Made by a program: the position numbers and the translations under genes | NCBI RefSeq assembly: GCF_038592985.1 | Contig: NZ_CP151951.1 | Location: 1,293,001-1,357,000 of the forward strand | Direction of reading: 5' to 3' | Source of the DNA: Paenibacillus sp. FSL R10-2782 | GTDB taxonomy: Bacteria > Bacillota > Bacilli > Paenibacillales > Paenibacillaceae | DNA length: 64,000 bases | Shown: in pieces, positions 14,425 through 25,299 of the stretch | How the letters are laid out: every line of letters starts with the position of its first letter | How positions within the stretch are numbered: position 1 is the stretch's first letter | Notes under the pieces: model-generated | What the model was told of the DNA's origin: nothing | Databases searched by the model: none | The model's input: only the letters and a program-made list of their open reading frames with translations

Positions 14425-14478
14425 CAAGGGGACAATTCCTCGGCCGATTTTACGGCTGTGGAGTTCGTCCCCTTTTTT
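14425..14478 (+). terminator. Terminator between YitT gene and convergent ligD
   Basis: AAGGGGAC pairs with GTCCCCTT, enclosing an imperfect inner stem (CGGCCG/CGGCTG), and is followed by a T run. It probably serves the YitT gene and lies at the very end of the convergent ligD gene. Confidence 0.8.
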
Positions 14479-15367
14479 ATTTGGCGCGCATATGCTTTAG
14501 AACATCTTCGATGGGCTGTGGAGGGACCTTGGAAATCAAGTCGCCTACCTGATTTAGCCGTTCCTCAATATTCAGCAAATGATAGTCAAGCGGTGAAACG
14601 TCTTGTCGTACCTCGTCCCATGTCAGTGGGGTGGACACCGTAGCGCCAGGGCGTGCCCGCGGGGTATAGGGAGCGGCCAGGGTTTTTCCTTGATAATGCT
14701 GCAAATAATCAAAATAGATAGCGGTTCCCCGATCCTTTTTTAAACGTTCCAGCGTGAACAGGTGCGGGTGCTTTTCGGTCACAAACTGTCCCACCAGCAG
14801 ACCGATGCTGCGAAGCTCGTCGAAGGTTATGCCTGTGCGGATTGGGACGATAATTTGTACACCCGTGGCCCCGGACGTTTTGGGTACGGATTCCAAACCA
14901 AGCGAAGCCAGCACTTCACCGACGATGAATGCCGCTTCCATAATGCGTGGCTCCACTTCTCTGGACGGATCAAGGTCAATCATCCATTCGCAGGGCAGCG
15001 TGCTTCCGGCTTGATGCAGCGATGGGTGAAATTCCAGCGCCGCCTGATTGCCGAGCCATAGCAGTTGCGGTAGCGTACCAAGCACCATATATTCAATGCC
15101 GTCATGCAGGAAAGTCTCGATATAGCCTGGACGAGGCTGCGGGGCATTTTTCTGGTAGAAAAAATCCCCGTGAATACCGTGCGGCCAACGGATGACGGTC
15201 AGCAAACGGTTGTGGCTATATTTGAGCAGAAAAGGGGCCAGCACTGCAAGCTTGCGAAGATACAGCGCTTTGGTGATGCCAGCTTCGGGCCATAGCGGTT
15301 TATCCGGGTTGGTGATAGGAATTTCCAGACCTTCGATGGTAATGATGCCTTTAACAGCTTGTCCCAT
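14477..15367 (-). CDS. ligD: NHEJ DNA polymerase (stand-alone LigD polymerase/primase domain)
   Basis: This 296-residue protein corresponds only to the polymerase domain of bacterial LigD; no ligase or phosphoesterase domain is present. Motifs are WMIDLDPS with the catalytic Asp pair (near residue 128), KTSGATGVQIIVPI, FDYLQHYQGKTLAAPYTPRA and ATVSTPLTWDEV. It adds ribo- or deoxyribonucleotides at broken ends during non-homologous end joining with Ku and an ATP-dependent ligase. The matching ku gene lies on the same strand 8.7 kb away, on the other side of the lasso operon. The start follows GAAGGAG. Confidence 0.92.
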   Translation of the reverse strand: MGQAVKGIITIEGLEIPITNPDKPLWPEAGITKALYLRKLAVLAPFLLKYSHNRLLTVIRWPHGIHGDFFYQKNAPQPRPGYIETFLHDGIEYMVLGTLPQLLWLGNQAALEFHPSLHQAGSTLPCEWMIDLDPSREVEPRIMEAAFIVGEVLASLGLESVPKTSGATGVQIIVPIRTGITFDELRSIGLLVGQFVTEKHPHLFTLERLKKDRGTAIYFDYLQHYQGKTLAAPYTPRARPGATVSTPLTWDEVRQDVSPLDYHLLNIEERLNQVGDLISKVPPQPIEDVLKHMRAK

Positions 15368-15510
15368 AACGTCTACGCTCCTTCTTTTAACCTGTGATAA
15401 GCTGAACTCGAAAAAATGTACATGGAAACGGAGTAGACGGAATGATGCACCTCTAGATGTAGTTATGGATTAACATGAGCGTCATGTACAGAAATTATCC
15501 GTCAAAGGGA

Positions 15511-15600: not shown

Positions 15601-16869
15601 TTGATTGATAAGCAAGGCGAGGGACTGGTTTTCCTGCTTAGTGTCCCCCGAAGTGGAAGCTCGCTAGTGACTACCATTTTGCAAAACCACTCCCGCCTGT
15701 TTGCCACGCAGGAAATGTGGTTCCTGCTCAGCCTACATGATCTTCCCCAGTCGCAAACACGTCCCTATGGGGGAACTGGAATCATCCGGCAATTTTTTAA
15801 CGGTATGGTTCCTCCGCACGTATTGGAACAGGCTTCCCGATCGTATGCACTTGAGATCTATAACGGTTTGCTTGAAGGGACTAACGCAAATATGGTTATC
15901 GACAAATCCCCGCGTTACTATACGGTGCTGGAATTTATAGACCGTCTTTTCCCGGCAGCCCGCAGGGTATGGCTTATCCGTAATCCCTTATCTATTGCGG
16001 CTTCATTCAAAAAAGTTAATCAAATGCGTGGCGAACGTTTTCATCTGCTGGAGGAGCTGGAAAGCCCGCATTTTAATATGAAGATGACGGATATTACGGT
16101 CGGTTTGTTCCGTTATGCACATTATTTTGCCACACCTCATCCGCTTGCATACCCGCTTGTGTATGAACAACTTGTAGCCAATCCGGCGGTGGAGGTCGGG
16201 AGGCTGTGCGATTTTCTGGGTGTCGATTATGAACCGGGCATGGAAAAGTACGGGGATTTTGTGGATACACCTAAATCCAGTCTTTTTTACAGCATGGGAG
16301 CCGGGGATCCGTTCGTGGGGGAGCATGAACAGACGCATCAGGATTCGGTACATAGCTGGCAACATCTGTTGAACAAAAAGGAAATCGAGCTGTATTGCAG
16401 AAGCATCGGAGCTCGTATGTTTACACACCTCGGCTACGGGGAAGCACTGGAGCAGGCCGAGCATATCACCGGGGTAAGGTTTGAAGAGGAAGCCGATGTG
16501 GAGTTACTAAGTCGGCGTACGAGCCAGTTTCTCCAGCAAAGCGGCTTTGAGTGGAAGAACGCTTATCGGATGCTGGAAAAGCAGGATGCGGATAACAGGG
16601 GATTTATAATAAAAGCAGGACAGCATCCTGTACTTCAAGATTCTCGACAGAATGATGCTGTACAGGTTGTAAATGATAGACGGCTCCAATCGCTGGAAAA
16701 CAGGCTGGCACATAGCTATGAGGAGCGGAATCGTCTGATCGCACAGCTCCAAACCTACCAACGCAGAAATCAACGGCTCCGATCTCGTATCCCCTTTGCT
16801 CGTCATTTGGGGCGCTGGGCGTCTGTAGCGCTATCAGTTATGGAAAAAGAAAAAGGGGGGAAAACGTGA
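15601..16869 (+). CDS. Sulfotransferase-family protein, first gene of lasso peptide operon
   Basis: This 422-residue protein has an N-terminal sulfotransferase fold. LLSVPRSGSSLVTTILQNHS (near residue 12) is the P-loop-like site for the 5'-phosphate of PAPS, and WLIRNPLSIAASFKKV (near 125) carries the Arg/Ser of the 3'-phosphate site. After residue 300 comes a long charged, coiled-coil-like region. It probably transfers sulfate from PAPS to a hydroxyl or amine. TTG at 15601 is chosen because AGAGGAGGAG precedes it and a promoter lies between it and the upstream ATG. Its end overlaps the cyclase start as GTGA, so it is translationally tied to the lasso genes and may modify the peptide. Confidence 0.82.
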   Translation: MIDKQGEGLVFLLSVPRSGSSLVTTILQNHSRLFATQEMWFLLSLHDLPQSQTRPYGGTGIIRQFFNGMVPPHVLEQASRSYALEIYNGLLEGTNANMVIDKSPRYYTVLEFIDRLFPAARRVWLIRNPLSIAASFKKVNQMRGERFHLLEELESPHFNMKMTDITVGLFRYAHYFATPHPLAYPLVYEQLVANPAVEVGRLCDFLGVDYEPGMEKYGDFVDTPKSSLFYSMGAGDPFVGEHEQTHQDSVHSWQHLLNKKEIELYCRSIGARMFTHLGYGEALEQAEHITGVRFEEEADVELLSRRTSQFLQQSGFEWKNAYRMLEKQDADNRGFIIKAGQHPVLQDSRQNDAVQVVNDRRLQSLENRLAHSYEERNRLIAQLQTYQRRNQRLRSRIPFARHLGRWASVALSVMEKEKGGKT

Positions 16870-18791
16870 GTGCGATTGCAGGAATATACAGCTTCGGACA
16901 TAAGCCCGTCTGCACCGAAGAAGGCGGTAAAATGATGCAAGCTCTGCGAAAATATCCCGCCGACCGCGTTTGCGCCTGGTGTGAGGGTTCTATATTCTTG
17001 GGCTGCCACGCGCAGCATGTGACACCGGAATCCGTCCATGAGCGTCTCCCTTTCTATGACGAGGAACGGAATTTGGCAATTACGGCGGATGCGATTATTG
17101 ACAATCGATCCGAGCTGTTTGAACGGCTGGGGGTGGGACAGGAACGGCGGCAAGACATCACGGACAGCGAGTTAATTTTGCTGGCATACGACAAATGGGC
17201 GCTCGACGCGGCTCGCTATCTGATAGGCGATTTTGCCTTTGTCATTTGGGATGCCGGGCTGCACAGGTTATATGGCGCTCGTGATATGGCAGGAAGCCGC
17301 ACGCTGTATACATACGAACATGACCGAGGGTTTGCATTCAGTACAGTAGTAGCCCCTCTTCTGACGTTGCCTTCCCTGCGAAAAGAATTGCATGAGCCGT
17401 GGCTGGCGGAATTTCTGTCGATCCGCGCCATGCAGGAATCCGTCGATATTGGGACAACTGGCTACAAGCATATAAACCAGCTCCCGCCCGCCCATTGGTT
17501 CACCATGGAGGAGGGAAAGTCAACCCTCCATAAATATGCATCTCTGGATGATGTGGAGCCGTTGCGGCTCAAAACCGGTGGCGAGTACGTGGAGGCTTTT
17601 CGCGAGGTATTCTCACAGGCGGTGAATGCCAGATTGCGCACGCATCGTGGGGTGGGAGCGGCCTTGAGTGGCGGTCTGGATTCCGGTGCGGTTGCCAGCT
17701 TTGCCGCGCCGTCGCTGCGATTGCAGCAAAAGCCTCTTCATGCGTACAGCTATGTGCCCGTACAGGATTTTACGGATTGGACACCATCGACACTGCTGGC
17801 GAATGAACGGGCTTATATCCAATCCACGGCTCGATATGTGGGCAACATCCACGAAAATTACCTGGATTTTGAGGGGAAAAGCCCATTTTCAGAAATTGAT
17901 ATCTGGCTGGAATTGATGGAAGCTCCCTATAAATATTTTGAAAATTCGTTCTGGATCAGAGGCTTTTATGAAAAAGCACAGGAACAAAATGTGGGTGTGC
18001 TGTTAACCGGAGCGCGAGGTAATTTTACCATTTCGTGGGGGCCTGCGCTGGACTATTATGCCCGTCAGCTTCGTCGTTTGCACTGGCTGCAATCTTTTCA
18101 GGGATTGTGGCAGTACAGCAAGCTGACCGGAAGGCGAGTATCGCATTTATTACCCGTGATGCTGAAGAAAGCGACCTCGCTCGATTCTCGTTCCTGGTTA
18201 CGCGGCGGTAATCGGAGTCCGGTTCCTTCGCTCATTCACCCGGAGTTTGCCAAGCGGATGAATGTGGAGGACATTCCGACTTTGAGTGGAACCGGGTGGA
18301 TGAAGAATGCAGATCAGGCGAGAAAAGAGAAGTTCACGAATTTGGCGATTGCGAACAAAAATGGTGTGGTTGCGACCAAGCTGTCGCTGCGTTACGGACT
18401 GTGGGAACGTGATCCGACCGGAGACAGCCGGGTGATCCGCTTTTGCCTGTCGGTGCCCTTTGAGCAATACGTGCAAAACGGCCGGGATCGCGCACTTATT
18501 CGCGGAGCCATGCGGGATTATTTGCCCGATGATGTCCGGTTAAACCAGCGTGTACGCGGTGTCCAGCCTGCGGATTGGCTGCACCGTATGCTCCCCTGCT
18601 GGGAAACGTTTATGGGGGAACTTCAACTGCTGTGCCATGATTTACATGCCGCCGAATTTCTGAATATCGATGTCATTAAAACGGCTATGGCGAAGTTTCG
18701 TCAACCGCGACCAGAGCAGGCGTCCGATCCCAACCTACGATTGTTGATGCACAGTCTGATTGTGTACCGCTTTATACGCGGATTTAACTGA
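16866..18791 (+). CDS. Lasso peptide cyclase (asparagine-synthetase-like, C protein)
   Basis: This 641-residue protein has an N-terminal glutamine-amidotransferase-like domain and a C-terminal asparagine-synthetase-like domain with the ATP-binding PP-loop SGGLDSGAVASFA (near residue 268). The N-terminus reads MSAIAGIY without the catalytic Cys2 of true asparagine synthetase, as in lasso cyclases. The enzyme should adenylate the side chain of core Asp9 so that the free N-terminal amine of Ala1 closes the macrolactam ring. It starts at GTG after AAGGGGGG, overlapping the sulfotransferase stop, and lies 53 bp upstream of the precursor gene. Confidence 0.93.
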   Translation: MSAIAGIYSFGHKPVCTEEGGKMMQALRKYPADRVCAWCEGSIFLGCHAQHVTPESVHERLPFYDEERNLAITADAIIDNRSELFERLGVGQERRQDITDSELILLAYDKWALDAARYLIGDFAFVIWDAGLHRLYGARDMAGSRTLYTYEHDRGFAFSTVVAPLLTLPSLRKELHEPWLAEFLSIRAMQESVDIGTTGYKHINQLPPAHWFTMEEGKSTLHKYASLDDVEPLRLKTGGEYVEAFREVFSQAVNARLRTHRGVGAALSGGLDSGAVASFAAPSLRLQQKPLHAYSYVPVQDFTDWTPSTLLANERAYIQSTARYVGNIHENYLDFEGKSPFSEIDIWLELMEAPYKYFENSFWIRGFYEKAQEQNVGVLLTGARGNFTISWGPALDYYARQLRRLHWLQSFQGLWQYSKLTGRRVSHLLPVMLKKATSLDSRSWLRGGNRSPVPSLIHPEFAKRMNVEDIPTLSGTGWMKNADQARKEKFTNLAIANKNGVVATKLSLRYGLWERDPTGDSRVIRFCLSVPFEQYVQNGRDRALIRGAMRDYLPDDVRLNQRVRGVQPADWLHRMLPCWETFMGELQLLCHDLHAAEFLNIDVIKTAMAKFRQPRPEQASDPNLRLLMHSLIVYRFIRGFN

Positions 18792-18844
18792 TGCGGTCTA
18801 TCCGGTAGGACAGATACGTCGCTCGTTGGAGGGGAGGTGATGAC

Positions 18845-18973
18845 ATGAGTAAAAAAGAATGGCAAGAGCCAACCATAGAGGTGCTGGATATTAACCAGAC
18901 GATGGCAGGTAAGGGCTGGAAACAGATTGACTGGGTATCTGACCATGATGCCGATCTGTATAATCCAAGCTAG
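18845..18973 (+). CDS. Lasso peptide precursor (A protein)
   Basis: This 42-codon gene sits behind a strong GGAGGGGAGGTGA site, between the cyclase and kinase genes. The predicted leader has 20 residues and ends ..DINQTM, with the Thr at -2 that lasso leader peptidases need. The predicted core has 22 residues. Its ring segment is AGKGWKQID, giving an Ala1-Asp9 macrolactam, and its tail is WVSDHDADLYNPS, acidic and ending in Ser. From memory, paeninodin has the same pattern (A-G-x-G, Asp9, acidic tail, C-terminal Ser). The terminal Ser is the likely phosphorylation site of the kinase encoded downstream. Confidence 0.93.
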   Translation: MSKKEWQEPTIEVLDINQTMAGKGWKQIDWVSDHDADLYNPS

Positions 18974-18997
18974 AGAGTGGCAATTATTCAATACACA

Positions 18998-19055
18998 GCC
19001 GTCTTTATTTCTTGGGGTTTGAAGGTTTTGCTCGAAGAAATAAAGGCGGGATTTT
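18998..19055 (+). terminator. Internal terminator directly after the precursor gene
   Basis: GCCGTCTTTATTTCTT pairs with AAGAAATAAAGGCGGG (about 14 of 16 positions) around a 21-base loop, followed by ATTTTT. It stands 25 bp after the precursor stop and just before the kinase gene. Partial readthrough would give more precursor than enzyme mRNA. Confidence 0.75.
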
Positions 19056-19082
19056 TAAAGGGCAGAGGGAGTGAGTCCTATC

Positions 19083-20144
19083 GTGCATGACAGGAGTACC
19101 AATGTTAACCTGACGATGTATACAGCCTTTGGACTCAAACTTGCCAGCGAGCTGTATCTGCCTGAATTGATACCCGCAGCACCGGGAGCGGTGGAGGATG
19201 TGGTCATTCGTCAGACTGATTTGACAGCATGGAGCGATCAGTTGGAGCAGGCTAATTTTGTGATGCAGGGTGAGCGCTTTATGTTCCATATACCGGACAC
19301 AGCCATTTACGCCGTCAGGAGAGGCAGGGAAATTGAAGTATGTTCTTACTCCGGTGCTGATCCGGACACGGTAAGGTTGTTTGTGCTGGGCACATGTATG
19401 GGTGTCCTGCTGATGCAGAGAGGGATAGTGCCTATTCACGGGAGTGCGGTAGTTATCCGAGGTAGAGCCTATGCTTTTGTAGGCGAATCGGGAGCAGGTA
19501 AATCGACGCTGGCTGCTGCTTTTACCCAGGCAGGGTATCGGATAGTCAGTGATGATGTTATTGCTATGCAAGCTACGGCTTCCAAAACCATAGTCTATCC
19601 GGCTTACCCACAGCAAAAGTTGGGTCTGGAAAGCTTGCTCCAACTGGAGGCTTCACAGGGTAATAGGCATGCACACAAAAGCAATCACGGGCTTGTTTTA
19701 ATGGACGGCAATCCTGCGATGCTCAAATATGGACATTTGCGTAAGCTTACAGGTGAACTGAATAAATATGCCGTGCCGAGAGTGGACTACTTCTACAACA
19801 AACCGCTTCCCTTGGGAGGTGTATTCGAGCTGGTGGCGGAGTCTCCAAATCGTGAGTTCCAATGTGAAGGGAAGTTGCCGGCGGTTATGAAACAACCTTT
19901 GAACATGCTGGAGTGCTTGCATACGTTATTGCTTCATACATATCGCAGGGTGATCATTCCGCGAATGAGTCTGGGTGAATGGCATTTTGGAACGGTAGCC
20001 CAGGTGGCCCGGCAGGTGGAGGGCTGGCGACTACTGAGGGATAGCTCTGCTTTTACCGCGTCCGAGGTTGTACACCGGGTACTTGATATCATTTGTAAGG
20101 AGGAAAACAGCTGTGGCAGCTACTCATTCCATGAAGGATCATGA
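19083..20144 (+). CDS. HPr-kinase-like lasso peptide kinase (K protein)
   Basis: This protein of about 353 residues has a C-terminal HPr kinase-like domain. The P-loop AFVGESGAGKSTLAAAF lies near residue 145, preceded by IVPIHGSAVV and followed by YRIVSDDVIAM. The layout matches the kinases of paeninodin-type clusters, which phosphorylate the C-terminal Ser of the precursor. The product here ends in Ser, consistent with that role. GTG at 19083 has better spacing from GAGGGAG than the in-frame GTG at 19071. The 3' end overlaps the B1 gene by 32 bp. Confidence 0.88.
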   Translation: MHDRSTNVNLTMYTAFGLKLASELYLPELIPAAPGAVEDVVIRQTDLTAWSDQLEQANFVMQGERFMFHIPDTAIYAVRRGREIEVCSYSGADPDTVRLFVLGTCMGVLLMQRGIVPIHGSAVVIRGRAYAFVGESGAGKSTLAAAFTQAGYRIVSDDVIAMQATASKTIVYPAYPQQKLGLESLLQLEASQGNRHAHKSNHGLVLMDGNPAMLKYGHLRKLTGELNKYAVPRVDYFYNKPLPLGGVFELVAESPNREFQCEGKLPAVMKQPLNMLECLHTLLLHTYRRVIIPRMSLGEWHFGTVAQVARQVEGWRLLRDSSAFTASEVVHRVLDIICKEENSCGSYSFHEGS

Positions 20145-20415
20145 CCGTGTCATTCACGGTGAGGAAGTCTATGTCAGTGACATGGACGGGGAAAAGGTCA
20201 TGATGAGCATCAACACAGGAAAATATTATAATCTCGGCTTCACGGGAGGACGAATCTGGGAACTGGCGGAATCCGGCCCTTCACTGGGGGAGATCGTAGC
20301 TGCTCTGACGGATGAATATGAAGTGGACGAAGAACGGTGCAGACAGCAGGTACATACCTTTGTGGCTGAACTGGAACGGGAAGGACTGCTAAAGCTTCTG
20401 AGGGAGACGGTTTAA
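20113..20415 (+). CDS. Lasso peptide B1 protein (PqqD-like leader recognition element)
   Basis: This 100-residue PqqD-like protein contains EKVMMSINTGKYYNLGFTGG and IWELAESGPSLGEIVAALTD, the fold that binds RiPP leader peptides. It should hold the precursor leader and present it to the leader peptidase B2. The open frame begins at 20068, but GTG at 20113 is chosen because AAGGAGG lies directly before it. It overlaps the kinase end by 32 bp and ends two bases before the next start, so kinase, B1 and B2 are one translational block. Confidence 0.92.
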   Translation: MAATHSMKDHDRVIHGEEVYVSDMDGEKVMMSINTGKYYNLGFTGGRIWELAESGPSLGEIVAALTDEYEVDEERCRQQVHTFVAELEREGLLKLLRETV

Positions 20416-20416
20416 A

Positions 20417-22081
20417 ATGTGGATTCAACGCCTTCGGCGTCTATCCCCGGAGATCAGGAGACTGCTGCCGGAAGCCTGGATGCAACTCGGATGGGCGCGT
20501 CTTCACCAGCATCGTCCATTTGAAGATTATGCACGCGGTTGGGGAATACGTATGGAAGAAACCTCTTGGGAGTGTGATGCCCGGCAGAAGCAGGCTGCTC
20601 GGCATATTTCACATGCGGTGGAGCTGGCAAGCCGTTATACCCCTTGGCACAGTAGCTGTCTTGTGCAGGCTGCTGCCGCAATGACGTTGCTGGGTCGCAG
20701 AAAACTGGACTGCACGCTGTATCTTGGCACAGCCAAGAATGCTGCGGGACGTTTGGCGGCACATGCCTGGGTGCGGAGCGGACCGATTTATGTTACGGGC
20801 GAACGAGAGATGGGGGCGTTTACCGTAGTGGGTACCTTCGGCAGGCGTGCTGTGACGGACCCCAATACGAAGATTGCTGAAAGCATGTCCACCCATACAG
20901 CTCTGAAATCTGACCGCTGGAATGAGGATCAGGAATTAACGCTGCTGCTCTTTTTACTGCGAAAAGATGCCACTTCAAGGCTGGATACAATCGATGCTGG
21001 TGATCTGCATGGATTGGATTGGGCCCGCTTGCTGCGGCTGGCAGAACACCATCGGGTGGTACCTGCGGTATATCTTCGGTTGAAAAGAATAAATCATCCG
21101 GCCATCCCCGCTGAATTGCTGCGCAACCTTCAGGCTCAATATCACCGGAACACCCTGCGTATGTTGCACCTGCAAGCGGAAGCCGGGCGTGTGACTGGGC
21201 TGCTCATGAATCATGGCATCCGTGTACTTATGCTCAAGGGTCCTGCCTTGGCGCAGCAATTGTACGGGGATGTTTCCCTGCGTACCTCCAAGGACGTAGA
21301 CTTACTCATTGCTCCGGGCGACATGGATATGGCGGAGCAATGGATGCAGGAAGCCGGGTATGTACCCAAAAGCGGAGAAGCGCGTGTCCTGGGCAGTTGG
21401 AAATGGAAGGACCATCATGCATCCTTTCTTCATCCGCATAAGCGGGTAGAGATAGAGCTGCATTGGCGGCTCCACCCGGATGCAGGCGGAGAACCTTCTT
21501 TTGAGGACCTGTGGAAACACAGGCAAACCGATGAAGTCACAGCCACAGGAGTACCCTGTATGTACACGCTTGGCAGCGAGCACCAGTTTCTGTACCTTAG
21601 CGCACACGGGGCGCGTCACGGCTGGTTCAGGCTGCGCTGGCTGGTGGACATCGACAGGCTTGCGGTACGCGCCGTCGATTGGGAGGCGCTTCTGCCGATG
21701 ATGCGCCGATATGGGGGACTGCCTGCGGGCGGGCAGGCTTGGGCGCTCGCCGCTGCGCTGCTGGGCACCTCGATACCGGAGCCGCTGCGTCAGGTAGCGG
21801 CTACACGGCTGGCGCACAGGCTCGCGCTGAGCGCGCTGGACTTCATTCAGGCCAGTGTACCGGCGGCGTACCCGGTAGCCGAACCATCGATCCAACAGCC
21901 AACCAGTCGATCCTATTTGCTCTCCCTAAAGGAGCCGAGCCACCGATTGCTGTACCTGATCAGCCGTTTGCTTCCTTCTACGGGCGATCCGGCCGTTTTA
22001 CCGCTGCCTCGCCAGCTGCATTTTCTGTACATTCCTTTACGTCCATTTCTCTGGCTAAAACGGCGATTCTCGAAGCACTGA
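20417..22081 (+). CDS. Fusion of lasso leader peptidase (B2) and nucleotidyltransferase
   Basis: This 554-residue protein has two domains. Residues about 1-145 are the transglutaminase-like B2 leader peptidase, with the catalytic Cys in WHSSCLVQAAAAM, the His in AAHAWVRSG and the family segment FTVVGTFG. Residues about 165-500 resemble the nucleotidyltransferase family PF14907, with GIRVLMLKGPALAQQLYGD and SLRTSKDVDLLIAP carrying the DxD metal site. B2 cuts the leader after TM. From memory, a nucleotidyltransferase-like enzyme in the pseudomycoidin pathway decorates the phosphorylated C-terminus with hexoses. A similar step is possible here but is inference. Confidence 0.88.
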   Translation: MWIQRLRRLSPEIRRLLPEAWMQLGWARLHQHRPFEDYARGWGIRMEETSWECDARQKQAARHISHAVELASRYTPWHSSCLVQAAAAMTLLGRRKLDCTLYLGTAKNAAGRLAAHAWVRSGPIYVTGEREMGAFTVVGTFGRRAVTDPNTKIAESMSTHTALKSDRWNEDQELTLLLFLLRKDATSRLDTIDAGDLHGLDWARLLRLAEHHRVVPAVYLRLKRINHPAIPAELLRNLQAQYHRNTLRMLHLQAEAGRVTGLLMNHGIRVLMLKGPALAQQLYGDVSLRTSKDVDLLIAPGDMDMAEQWMQEAGYVPKSGEARVLGSWKWKDHHASFLHPHKRVEIELHWRLHPDAGGEPSFEDLWKHRQTDEVTATGVPCMYTLGSEHQFLYLSAHGARHGWFRLRWLVDIDRLAVRAVDWEALLPMMRRYGGLPAGGQAWALAAALLGTSIPEPLRQVAATRLAHRLALSALDFIQASVPAAYPVAEPSIQQPTSRSYLLSLKEPSHRLLYLISRLLPSTGDPAVLPLPRQLHFLYIPLRPFLWLKRRFSKH

Positions 22082-22101
22082 CCTGATAAGGAGCGTGCAA
22101 T

Positions 22102-23976
22102 ATGTACCACCTGCGATTATATATGACCAAGCTGTATGCCGTGAACGGCGGTGCGTTATTTCTCAATATTGGATGTATGATCATCGTCAGCTTGCTGGAG
22201 GGGCTGGGTATTTACATGCTTGTTCCCATGCTGGCGGCTATCGGTATATTTGGCGGTCATGCAGGGATGGCCATCCTGTCAGGCGGATTGGATCATTTCT
22301 TGTCAAACATCCCTAAAAGCTGGCTGTTGCCGGGAATGCTGTTGCTTTTTGTGTTGCTGCTCATAGGGCAGGCTCTGCTTCAGCGTTACCAGTCCATTCT
22401 GAATTCACGGATTCAGCAACGATTCATGCGTTCCCTTCGAATAGATGTATATACCTCCTTTATGAAGGCCCAATGGACTTTTTATTTGCGTCAGCGGAAG
22501 TCTGATTTCAGCCATGTGATGACAACCGAGCTGGCGCGTGTCAGTCAGGGAACCAATTTGCTCCTTCAGCTCACCACAGCCGTTATTTTTACGCTGATCC
22601 AGATTGCGCTGGCTTTTTGGCTGTCTCCTTCTTTAACCGGACTGGTGTTTCTGTGCGGATTGGGGCTGTTTGTCGTGTTTCGCAGATCCATTCAAAACGC
22701 TAAACAACTGGGCGACCGTACCACCGAGCTGTCGCAGGTTTATTTTGCCGGAATTACCGACCATATGAACGGGATGAAGGATATTAAAAGCAATCTGCTG
22801 GAAGCCGCGAATATAGACTGGTTTCGCTCCTTGACCCAACGGATGGAGGACAATACAACCCAGTTTGTACGGCAGAACGCAACCACACAATTTTTTCATC
22901 GCACAGCCGCTGCTGTATTTGTTGCTTGCATTATGTTTGTATCACTGCAATGGCTACATGTCTCTCCTGAAAAGTTGATTGTGCTCATCCTTATATTTTC
23001 CCGCTTATGGCCAAGGTTTGCCCTTATTCAAGCGAGCCTGGAATATATCATGTCCATGCTGTCTGCCTTTGAAAGTGTGACCAAGGTACAGCAGGAATGC
23101 GAAGCTTTCTCAGATCCGTCGCTAACGGCACTTACAACCTTTGAGACTCGCGTTTCAAGCGTTCTATCGGCAACCCATCAATCTGTATCAGCATCTACAA
23201 CTTCATCTGTACGCCAACCCTTGTATCTACGTACGGGCATTGAATGCAGTGGTCTGGATTATCGGTATGAGGGTACAGCAGCGCTTGCATTACACCAAAT
23301 AAATCTGTTCATCCCTGCTCGGGGAATGACGGCTATTGTGGGGAAATCGGGCGCAGGCAAAAGTACAATGGTTGACGTTCTGATGGGATTTTTACGACCA
23401 ACTCAGGGCCAGATTAAAATAGACGGACATATACTGGACGACGAGTTGTTGCCACAGTGGCGGCAATCGTTTGGCTATGTGTCGCAGGACCCTTTTTTAT
23501 TCCATGCCACCGTCCGTGAAAATTTGAAGCTGGCTGATGCAGATGCGAGCGAGGAGCAGTTATGGGAAGCGTTACATTTTGCATCCGCAGACGGGTTTGT
23601 TGCCAGATTGCCCGAAGGACTGGACACGGTAATCGGGGATCGCGGCATTCGTCTGTCAGGAGGGGAACGTCAGCGGCTAGTGTTGGCAAGAGCTGTCCTG
23701 CATCGTCCTCCGGTACTCATTCTGGATGAGGCGACAAGTGCGCTGGATGGAGAGCATGAAGCCGATATTCAGGCGGCGCTGGAGCGGATGAAAGGTCAAA
23801 TGACGCTGATCGTCATTGCCCATCGACTGTCGACCATCCGTCATGCCGATCAGATTGTCGTTCTGGAGCAGGGAGAGATTATACAGCAGGGGAATTACCG
23901 TCAATTGGTGCAGGAGGAGCGGGGGGCGTTCAGTCAACTGCTGTCTTACCAAAGCAGTGTGTTCTCCACCCCTTAG
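22102..23976 (+). CDS. ABC exporter of the lasso peptide (D protein)
   Basis: This 624-residue half-transporter has an N-terminal six-helix membrane domain and a C-terminal ATPase: Walker A VGKSGAGKSTMVDVLMGF (near residue 413), signature IRLSGGERQRLVLARAV, Walker B PVLILDEATSALD and the H-loop histidine in IVIAHRLSTIRHA. There is no N-terminal C39 peptidase domain, as expected when B2 removes the leader. It should export the mature lasso peptide and give self-protection. A low-complexity Ser/Thr linker of about 35 residues separates the domains. It is the last gene of the operon. Confidence 0.93.
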   Translation: MYHLRLYMTKLYAVNGGALFLNIGCMIIVSLLEGLGIYMLVPMLAAIGIFGGHAGMAILSGGLDHFLSNIPKSWLLPGMLLLFVLLLIGQALLQRYQSILNSRIQQRFMRSLRIDVYTSFMKAQWTFYLRQRKSDFSHVMTTELARVSQGTNLLLQLTTAVIFTLIQIALAFWLSPSLTGLVFLCGLGLFVVFRRSIQNAKQLGDRTTELSQVYFAGITDHMNGMKDIKSNLLEAANIDWFRSLTQRMEDNTTQFVRQNATTQFFHRTAAAVFVACIMFVSLQWLHVSPEKLIVLILIFSRLWPRFALIQASLEYIMSMLSAFESVTKVQQECEAFSDPSLTALTTFETRVSSVLSATHQSVSASTTSSVRQPLYLRTGIECSGLDYRYEGTAALALHQINLFIPARGMTAIVGKSGAGKSTMVDVLMGFLRPTQGQIKIDGHILDDELLPQWRQSFGYVSQDPFLFHATVRENLKLADADASEEQLWEALHFASADGFVARLPEGLDTVIGDRGIRLSGGERQRLVLARAVLHRPPVLILDEATSALDGEHEADIQAALERMKGQMTLIVIAHRLSTIRHADQIVVLEQGEIIQQGNYRQLVQEERGAFSQLLSYQSSVFSTP

Positions 23977-24032: not shown

Positions 24033-24947
24033 TCAGGTTTCCTTGTGTTTGGCTGTGCTCCTTTTCTTTTTGATCGGAGTTGGAGAAACGGCATCTCCTG
24101 CCACTGCTTGTTGTGTTGTTGTGGTTGCTGCTTTACGCGCAGGACGTTTTTTCACGTCAGGGCCGGGATCGGTAACAACAGGCTTCACTGCCTCGATGCT
24201 GGCCTGGAGTGCAGCCATCAAGTCCACAACATTAGCCTGTGGCTGGGACGGGGCGATTCGGATCTCTTCTCCAGCCACTTTATGCTGAATGAGATCCAGC
24301 AGCCGCTCGCGGTACTGGTCCGTGTATTTTGCTGCATCAAAAGGTGTAGATAGCTGCTCAATGAGCATTTTTGCCATGGTCAGTTCCTTCTCTTTAACTT
24401 CCTCCTGCCCTGGCAGATTAGGAACCTGGGACACTGGGCGAATTTCATCCGGGTAAAACATCGTCTCCACCGCCAAGCATTCATCCAGTACACGAATAGC
24501 CGCCAGACTGCTTTTGGATCGTATCGAGATTTGAGCAATGCCAATTTTTCCGGTATCCTTCATCGCATTCATAAGAAGCTTGTAAGCATTGGAGCCTGCC
24601 TGATCCGGGGACAAATAATACGTTTTTTGAAAATAAATCGGATCAATCTCCTGCAAGTCCACAAAATCCAAAATAACGATATTTTTATCCGCTTGTCCGC
24701 TGATTTGCTCCAGTTCCTCCTTATCGAACATGACAAACTTCCCTTTTTCGTATTCATAGCCTTTTCCAATTTCCTCCCATTCGACCTCCTTGTCACAAAC
24801 GGGACACTTTCGTACATAACTGAGCGGACTTCCGCATTCCTTGTGAATATAACGCATGGAAATATCCTTATCCTCTGTCGCCGAAAACATCTTAACAGGC
24901 ACATGAACCAGCCCAAAGCTGATCGCGCCTTTCCAGACCGTATGCAT
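24033..24947 (-). CDS. ku: Ku protein (NHEJ end-binding)
   Basis: This 304-residue Ku homodimer subunit begins MHTVWKGAISFGLVHVPVKM, the classic bacterial Ku start, and contains CPVCDKEVEWEEIGKGYEY, FVDLQEIDPIYFQKTYYLSP and ELTMAKMLIEQL. A lysine-rich C-terminal tail (about residues 265-304) is likely to bind DNA and recruit the ligase. The frame extends 27 codons upstream, but ATG at 24947 is preceded by AAAGGAGG. It works with the LigD polymerase at 14.5-15.4 kb; the lasso operon lies between them. Confidence 0.95.
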   Translation of the reverse strand: MHTVWKGAISFGLVHVPVKMFSATEDKDISMRYIHKECGSPLSYVRKCPVCDKEVEWEEIGKGYEYEKGKFVMFDKEELEQISGQADKNIVILDFVDLQEIDPIYFQKTYYLSPDQAGSNAYKLLMNAMKDTGKIGIAQISIRSKSSLAAIRVLDECLAVETMFYPDEIRPVSQVPNLPGQEEVKEKELTMAKMLIEQLSTPFDAAKYTDQYRERLLDLIQHKVAGEEIRIAPSQPQANVVDLMAALQASIEAVKPVVTDPGPDVKKRPARKAATTTTQQAVAGDAVSPTPIKKKRSTAKHKET

Positions 24948-25299
24948 ACCGCCAGTCCTCCTTTTCTTTAATCCGCATGTTGTATCCTTCGATTCCAACG
25001 CTTGGCTGTGAGCATATTCATTTTTCACTTAGTATGCTTCGGAGAGCTATATCGCATAACACAATGATTTGAGGTTGTTAAGTTACATGGGTTATATTAA
25101 GATAAGGAATAATAAATAATCTTGCCATTTTATAAGGAAGGAGTGTTCATGTCATGAAGAAAAGATCATTAAACTTTATATCTTTTGGATATGGATACTC
25201 TACTGCTGTTTTTTTCTAAAATCATTTTTATGGGTGGAGTCTGCCTAAAAATGGTTAGAAGAAACGGTAGAAAAATTTTAAAATGACGAGGTCGATTAA
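24948..25299. other. AT-rich intergenic region between ku and RidA-like gene
   Basis: This divergent region must hold the ku promoter and the promoter of the next gene. A 22-codon ORF at about 25154-25219 (beginning MKKRSLNFISF) follows GGAAGGAG and could be a tiny peptide or a remnant. No other supported feature is visible. Confidence 0.35.

What the first reader, a model, noticed from the sequence alone, without database searches (positions are those of the whole stretch)
15601..23976. Lasso peptide operon with three candidate tailoring enzymes
One operon combines precursor, cyclase, B1, B2 and exporter with a kinase, a nucleotidyltransferase domain and a sulfotransferase. This predicts a lasso peptide that is phosphorylated, further substituted and perhaps sulfated. 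From memory the closest type is paeninodin, but the sulfotransferase leader gene and the fused B2 make this arrangement unusual.
Basis: partly seen in the sequence, partly recalled or inferred. Interest (0 to 1): 0.82.

Follow-up and report, generated by a model that had tools for sequence, protein, structure and literature searches.

The report
Lasso peptide operon with sulfotransferase
A Paenibacillus gene cluster for a knotted (lasso) peptide carries the known phosphate- and sugar-adding enzymes plus a sulfotransferase of untested function; the arrangement is already published and common, but comparison of relatives suggests which residue the sulfate might go on.

Summary
In detail: 15601-23976 (+) is one operon: sulfotransferase (ST), cyclase, 42-aa precursor, HprK-like kinase, B1, B2 fused to a nucleotidyltransferase (N), ABC exporter. 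The precursor passes the paeninodin-family model (61 bits, cut-off 27). The arrangement is not new: PMC8498205 credits Zhu et al. 2016 with an ST at the start of such clusters and with B2-N fusions, and PMC11381294 reports ST and nucleotidyltransferase genes in P. polymyxa CR1. Here 104 of 394 family genomes match the ST (102 as near-full orthologs). Relatives of kinase and N were tested by others (phosphate on the C-terminal Ser, hexose on it); I found no functional test of the ST. Its model resembles tyrosylprotein sulfotransferases. All 83 ST+ loci have a core with Ser/Thr three residues after the ring Asp (Ser12 here), against 6 of 50 ST-less loci, all six sister to ST+ clusters; three ST+ loci have no Tyr. 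Ser/Thr12 sulfation is my leading, unproven reading; sulfation of the added hexose is the main rival. The association was found after the fact and is not significant once relatedness is counted (4 independent contrasts). Ordinary cluster type, one new testable prediction.

The parts
15601..16869 (+). PAPS-dependent sulfotransferase (ST), Sulfotransfer_3 family, 422 aa, TTG start
   Evidence: PF13469 6e-25; start and ribosome-binding site; P16, R17, S18, G19, R127, S135, E38 and K102 invariant in 15 orthologs; model nearest tyrosylprotein sulfotransferases
16866..18791 (+). lasso macrolactam cyclase C (asparagine-synthetase-like)
   Evidence: PF00733 and PF13537; lass_lactam_cya NF033535 343 bits, below its cut-off of 525
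18845..18973 (+). lasso precursor A, 42 aa
   Evidence: NF033524 paeninodin family, 61.3 bits, cut-off 27
18905..18970 (+). predicted core AGKGWKQIDWVSDHDADLYNPS (ring Ala1-Asp9; Ser12; Tyr19; C-terminal Ser22)
   Evidence: Thr at leader -2; a core with Asp9 in 82 of 83 ST+ loci
19071..20144 (+). HprK-like lasso peptide kinase K
   Evidence: Hpr_kinase_C 30.3 bits (cut-off 33.3); H123, K144, D161, D162 invariant in 16 kinases, matching the His-Lys-Asp-Asp set described in PMC9266682
20131..20415 (+). B1, PqqD-like leader recognition protein
   Evidence: NF033536 111.7 bits, cut-off 80; solved relatives 9x90, TbiB1
20417..22081 (+). B2-N fusion protein, 554 aa
   Evidence: NF033537 102 bits, cut-off 33 and PF14907 226 bits, cut-off 31
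20456..20839 (+). B2 leader peptidase domain
   Evidence: aa 14-141 by NF033537
21014..21766 (+). N nucleotidyltransferase-fold domain
   Evidence: aa 200-450 by PF14907; RTSxDxD and E-x-H-W invariant in 17 sequences; model weakly matches nucleotidyltransferase folds incl. MenT1, LnuA, FKRP
22102..23976 (+). D, ABC exporter
   Evidence: PF00664 and PF00005

Best explanation
The operon makes and exports a 22-residue paeninodin-family lasso peptide. B1 binds the leader, B2 removes it, C closes a ring between Ala1 and Asp9, and D exports the product. Before folding, K phosphorylates the C-terminal Ser22 and N adds hexose to that phosphate (both inferred from tested relatives). The ST, fed by PAPS, adds sulfate to the same product; the most likely acceptor is the hydroxyl at ring Asp+3 (Ser12), read in an acidic setting (D15, D17). 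Shown here: genes, domains, conserved catalytic residues, pathway membership of the ST, and the residue association. Inferred: every enzymatic step. My split: ST belongs to this pathway 0.95; the product is sulfated in vivo 0.7; acceptor Ser/Thr12 0.4, hexose 0.28, Tyr19 0.1, other 0.22.
For: Family assignments. Kinase and N catalytic residues kept. PAPS-binding residues kept and an APS kinase in the genome; this ST is the genome's only PF13469 hit. All 83 ST+ loci mapped hold the ST among lasso genes. A core with Ser/Thr at ring Asp+3: 83 of 83 ST+ loci, 6 of 50 ST-less loci with a parsed core. Four ST-less genomes of one clade (L213, L243, L244, L245) keep D15, D17 and T19 but carry Lys at position 12. 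L122, an ST+ cluster placed (support 84-90, not starred) in an otherwise ST-less group, has TVHDPD at the same register. The ST model is closest to TPSTs, with OLS and CurM nearly as close, which fits a peptide or acyl hydroxyl. Three ST+ loci have no Tyr in any core (L003, L122, L140), nor does the core of Paenibacillus sp. APC 4171, reported identical to P. polymyxa CR1 (His at 19, ST in operon; PMC11381294).
Against: The residue-12 link was found by inspection, not set in advance, and relatedness is heavy: of 4 independent contrasts on supported branches ST and Ser/Thr12 go together in 2.0, opposite in 0, no difference in 2.0; not significant. In one search, with fewer ST-less loci and L140 set to 'present' by hand, it was 3, 0, 1. 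The count is per locus: about a dozen ST+ loci also carry a second core (GGPNGVxPDKNGKG type) with Gly at position 12. Six ST-less loci keep Ser/Thr12: L208 and L209 (ST lost) and four g17 genomes with four precursors each (L206, L210-L212), so the residue may serve the peptide itself. Raw association with N is also strong (76 of 78 complete ST+ clusters against 14 of 38 ST-less, p 5e-13), which favours the sugar. The best-named model is NoeE (15 of 15 orthologs, far below its cut-off); NoeE is a sugar sulfotransferase (recalled). Ser/Thr O-sulfation of peptides is rare (recalled).
Confidence: 0.4

Rival explanations
1. The ST sulfates a hydroxyl of the hexose that N places on the phosphorylated C-terminal Ser, giving a sulfo-hexosyl-phospho lasso peptide.
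For: 76 of 78 complete ST+ clusters hold an N of at least 300 matched residues, against 14 of 38 ST-less ones; the genomes of the two exceptions (L081 = G308, L119 = G126) have an intact N elsewhere, as has G309, whose cluster L075 has only an N remnant. L122 and L140, placed apart from the main ST+ group, hold ST and N together and no Tyr. Best NCBIfam model is NoeE. A core ending in Ser is present in all 124 loci (83 ST+, 41 ST-less).
Against: Tree-corrected contrasts: ST and N go together in 1.0, opposite 0.1, no difference 2.8 of 4. N occurs without ST. It does not explain why Ser/Thr12 tracks the ST.
Confidence: 0.28
2. The ST sulfates Tyr19 in the acidic DADLY stretch, as TPSTs and the bacterial RaxST do on their peptides (RaxST recalled).
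For: Model closest to TPSTs; TPST chains align over PRSG, the E of ATQE/GEE and the K of DKSP/NKDP; Tyr or Thr at Asp+10 in 79 of 83 ST+ loci against 10 of 50; Tyr anywhere in 80 of 83 against 35 of 50. L209, which lost the ST, has Phe there.
Against: Thr replaces Tyr at 19 in a group of ST+ clusters (e.g. L073, L075-L078, L085, L121); Val in P. maysiensis L003 with an open ST frame from the proposed start; His in APC 4171 / CR1; L122 and L140 have no Tyr. DxDxY also occurs in ST-less cores. Independent contrasts for Tyr: 0.5 together, 0.5 opposite, 3.0 none.
Confidence: 0.1
3. The [ST]xxDxD stretch is a property of this branch of peptides (folding, metal binding or target binding) and the ST either acts on something else or is an optional addition; the association is shared ancestry.
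For: Four g17 genomes keep the stretch in all 16 precursors found, without an ST (no ST at E 1e-3); ST has decayed or gone in G097, G091 and G086 while the rest of the cluster stays. Few independent contrasts.
Against: Lys12 with retained DxD in the four ST-less g16 genomes separates residue 12 from the rest; 83 of 83 in ST+ loci.
Confidence: 0.22

Closest known systems
Paenibacillus polymyxa CR1 / Paenibacillus sp. APC 4171 lasso cluster (Zhu 2016, seen only as cited; PMC11381294, passages)
   Same: ST and nucleotidyltransferase genes in the lasso operon; APC 4171 precursor differs from the window's by one residue (Y19H)
   Different: No difference of substance seen; whether B2 and N are fused there was not read
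Paeninodin, P. dendritiformis C454
   Same: Precursor family, C, K, B1, B2, D; C-terminal Ser
   Different: ST and N are not mentioned for it in the passages read (PMC8498205, PMC9266682); different loop and tail sequence (recalled)
Pseudomycoidin, Bacillus pseudomycoides DSM 12442
   Same: Kinase plus N giving phospho-Ser and hexose
   Different: N gene named on its own (psmN); no ST mentioned in the passages read
Tyrosylprotein sulfotransferases (TPST1/2); CurM and OLS sulfotransferase domains
   Same: Fold and PAPS-binding stretches of the ST
   Different: 16-22% identity in the fold search; the TPST CGEETR stretch is ATQEMW here
NoeE, Nod-factor sulfotransferase
   Same: Best NCBIfam match for all 15 orthologs scanned
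   Different: 129 bits against a cut-off of 500

Membership tests
Paeninodin-family lasso peptide cluster | Precursor passes NF033524 | tested here: met
   61.3 bits, cut-off 27
Paeninodin-family lasso peptide cluster | Separate B1 and B2 passing NF033536 / NF033537 | tested here: met
   111.7 vs 80; 102 vs 33; B2 is fused to N
Paeninodin-family lasso peptide cluster | Lasso cyclase passing NF033535 | tested here: inconclusive
   343 bits, best model, but cut-off 525
Paeninodin-family lasso peptide cluster | HprK-like kinase with His-Lys-Asp-Asp, and C-terminal Ser in the core | tested here: met
   the Pfam score itself is just under its cut-off (30.3 vs 33.3)
Paeninodin-family lasso peptide cluster | Threaded product | not testable with these tools
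   needs the peptide
Phosphoglycosylated lasso peptides (pseudomycoidin type) | N domain with intact nucleotidyltransferase residues beside K | tested here: met
   PF14907 226 bits; D113, D115, E167 of A2 invariant
Phosphoglycosylated lasso peptides (pseudomycoidin type) | Hexose found on phospho-Ser | not testable with these tools
   mass spectrometry needed
PAPS sulfotransferase | PAPS-binding stretches and fold | tested here: met
Tyrosylprotein sulfotransferase | Tyr acceptor in every partner peptide | tested here: not met
   Tyr-less cores in L003, L122, L140, 3 of 83 ST+ loci
NoeE | NF052394 cut-off | tested here: not met
   129 of 500 bits

The most novel reading that the evidence does not exclude
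The ST is a TPST-like enzyme that has switched to aliphatic hydroxyls and O-sulfates the Ser/Thr three residues after the macrolactam Asp, in a [ST]xxDxD setting, so that about a quarter of the species held in this family (102 of 394 genomes with a near-full ortholog) could make lasso peptides that are phosphorylated, hexosylated and sulfated on separate residues. No report of a sulfated lasso peptide was seen in the listings of six full-text searches; only some of the listed papers were opened.
Probability: 0.35. Interest if true: 0.62.

Novelty: new member of a known kind. Interest (0 to 1): 0.36.

Why it matters
Phosphorylated and hexosylated lasso peptides are known; a sulfated one was not seen in the searches made. 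If the ST works on the core, one operon would yield a peptide with three different charged or polar groups, and the acceptor prediction turns an open question (what the ST in these clusters does) into a single-residue experiment. PMC13381572 (passages) says the biological role of paeninodins is unknown; an optional ST that close relatives have lost may be a handle on it.

Tried and rejected
ST-needs-N as proof of sugar sulfation: raw counts look overwhelming, but the tree leaves too few independent contrasts, so it is kept only as a rival.

Tyr sulfation as the default reading: rejected as leading because of Tyr-less ST+ cores.

ST-cyclase fusion as a general feature: in the gene maps only L067 has it; the long open frames that one search printed for G316, G318, G303 and others were not fused in the maps (L093, L104, L112).

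ST outside the family: an even draw of 398 genomes of the class gave 18 with ST, all in the window's own family.

Promoter and terminator scan: nothing above shuffles.

Structure of N: the model matched nucleotidyltransferase folds only weakly (one match at E 1e-3 or better; FKRP at 3e-3); it does not settle whether N moves a nucleotide or a sugar.

Original papers PMC4919450 and PMC6993621 are not held; what I say of them comes from PMC8498205 and PMC9266682.

Sampling: of the ST hits, 78 were fetched by handle (one, L141, is decayed) and five more are named records; the other hits, mostly of the window's genus, were not. 'ST+' means at least 300 matched ST residues; in L139 they lie in two frames. 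Of the ST-less loci, 62 were chosen from the printed list of best B1 matches, and nine more were added because their precursors resembled ST+ ones, so they are not a random sample. Left out: L141 from ST+/ST- tallies; the L186 precursor, not parsed; ST-less loci without a parsed precursor from the core counts (50 used); 24 ST-less and 5 ST+ loci incomplete in the stretch, from the ST-N count. Core counts are per locus, any core counting. Eight or so ST-less cores have their Asp at position 10; the script read them at position 12, and by eye the residue at Asp+3 is Tyr.
Full report
WHAT IS THERE. In order on the + strand: sulfotransferase (ST), cyclase C, precursor A, HprK-like kinase K, B1, B2 fused to a nucleotidyltransferase domain N, exporter D. 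The ST frame opens at 15475, but one search aligns most distant orthologs only from about residue 35-42 on, and a TTG at 15601 follows AGGAGG, so the start at 15601 is the likely one.

WHAT EACH PART DOES. The precursor leader carries WQEP and ends in Thr-Met; the core is AGKGWKQIDWVSDHDADLYNPS. K keeps H123, K144, D161 and D162, invariant in 16 kinases; PMC9266682 (passages) describes a His-Lys-Asp-Asp set essential in tested relatives, which phosphorylate the C-terminal Ser of the linear precursor, and reports that PsmN of pseudomycoidin installs one or two hexoses on the phospho-Ser, while nucleotidylation followed by a host enzyme was not excluded. N here keeps D113, D115 and E167 of the 17-sequence alignment and its model (mean pLDDT 84.5) has weak matches to nucleotidyltransferase folds. 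The ST keeps PRSG, R127/S135, E38 and K102 in all 15 sequences aligned; an APS kinase is encoded 1.5 Mb away.

HOW COMMON. B1 of this type matches in 283 of 394 family genomes (248 over the cut-off). The ST matches in 104 of 394 at E 1e-10; of these G284 is a distant match (28% identity) and G097 holds only pieces, which leaves 102 with a near-full ortholog of at least 41% identity (in a few, such as G154, broken into two matches). In an even draw of 398 genomes of the class, 18 have it, all in the same family. I fetched 78 ST loci by handle (77 with at least 300 ST residues) besides L001-L005 and the window, 83 in all: in each the ST lies among lasso genes, nearly always first. The published record matches: PMC8498205 section 8 (read whole) credits Zhu 2016 with an ST at the start of the cluster and N between B2 and D, and mentions B2-N fusions; PMC11381294 (passages) reports ST and nucleotidyltransferase in Paenibacillus sp. 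APC 4171 and, from Zhu 2016, in P. polymyxa CR1; PMC4289311 (passage) noted an ST in some lasso clusters in 2014. So the cluster type is known.

WHAT DOES THE ST SULFATE? No functional test was seen in the listings and passages of the held library. I compared clusters. (a) N: 76 of 78 complete ST+ clusters have an N in the cluster, 14 of 38 complete ST-less ones do (p 5e-13); the exceptions L081 and L119 belong to genomes with an intact N elsewhere. (b) Tyr: three of 83 ST+ loci have no Tyr in any core (L003, L122, L140); the APC 4171 core has His at 19. (c) Position 12: all 83 ST+ loci have a core with Ser or Thr at ring Asp+3, 6 of 50 ST-less loci do (82 of 83 and 1 of 41 by strict position 12, before L140's shorter ring was allowed for and nine ST-less loci were added). 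Second cores of the GGPNGVxPDKNGKG type, in about a dozen ST+ loci, have Gly there. D15 is 82 of 83 against 10 of 50, D17 81 against 16, Tyr/Thr19 79 against 10, Tyr anywhere 80 against 35. The six ST-less loci with Ser/Thr12 are L208 and L209, sister to ST+ clusters, and four g17 genomes, also sister to ST+ ones; none of these six genomes has an ST at E 1e-3 (that empty answer had no positive control in the call, but the same profile found the ST). L208 keeps ST scraps of 16 and 11 residues. Four ST-less g16 genomes have Lys12 with D15, D17 and Thr19 kept.

HOW STRONG. The raw counts are inflated by relatedness. On a tree of cyclase, B1 and B2 (123 rows) only 4 contrasts are independent on supported branches: position 12 agrees in 2.0, disagrees in 0, no difference in 2.0; D15 1.3, 0, 2.7; D17 0.9, 0.2, 2.8; Tyr/Thr19 1.2, 0, 2.8; N 1.0, 0.1, 2.8; Tyr 0.5, 0.5, 3.0. 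None can reach significance; position 12 is simply the best. The tree is a quick one with long branches (L140, L081), and L122's place is not starred. The residue was chosen after looking. I therefore give Ser/Thr12 0.4 and the hexose 0.28.

STRUCTURE. The ST model (mean pLDDT 78) is nearest human TPST2 (E 6.6e-11; TM to target up to 0.73 for TPST1), with OLS (1.3e-10) and CurM (2.1e-10) nearly as close and heparan 3-O-sulfotransferases further off (about 1e-5); by sequence profile CurM is first (3.6e-28), TPSTs next (1.3e-13 to 6.7e-12). TPSTs take peptides in acidic settings (recalled), in line with the DxD beside the proposed site, but this does not choose between hydroxyls.

VERDICT. A new member of a known kind. 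Among the 146 loci mapped the fused B2-N is confined to the window's closest relatives, the ST is an accessory that has decayed or gone in G097, G091 and G086, and the one new thing is the acceptor prediction.

Noticed in passing
window 14477-15367 (-) and 24033-25028 (-): The operon sits between a LigD primase-polymerase gene and a ku gene, as if inserted into the end-joining repair pair; both flanks are found around the cluster in 14 of 147 other loci searched (many stretches may be too short to show them).
   Followed up: partly
L214-L227: Orphan precursors of the same core type with no cyclase, kinase, B1 or B2 in the stretch fetched, in genomes that have the ST cluster elsewhere; three (L217, L223, L226) have Glu at position 12. 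L214 stops at a contig end. They may be matured in trans.
   Followed up: partly
L093, L099, L104, L107, L108, L110, L112-L115, L145: Clusters with a second cyclase-precursor-kinase set between N and D; the second core is of the GGPNGVxPDKNGKG type.
   Followed up: no
L142, L151, L153, L156, L158-L160, L162, L166 and others: N-B1-B2-D groups with no cyclase, precursor or kinase found in the 15 kb fetched.
   Followed up: no
L067 2489-5815: ST and cyclase read as one open frame of 1109 aa.
   Followed up: no
L140: Divergent cluster with N and D in one frame and a 15-residue predicted core HGAGGGFDGTTISAS.
   Followed up: no
L141, L208, L209: ST decayed or missing in three close relatives while the rest of the cluster is kept.
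   Followed up: partly
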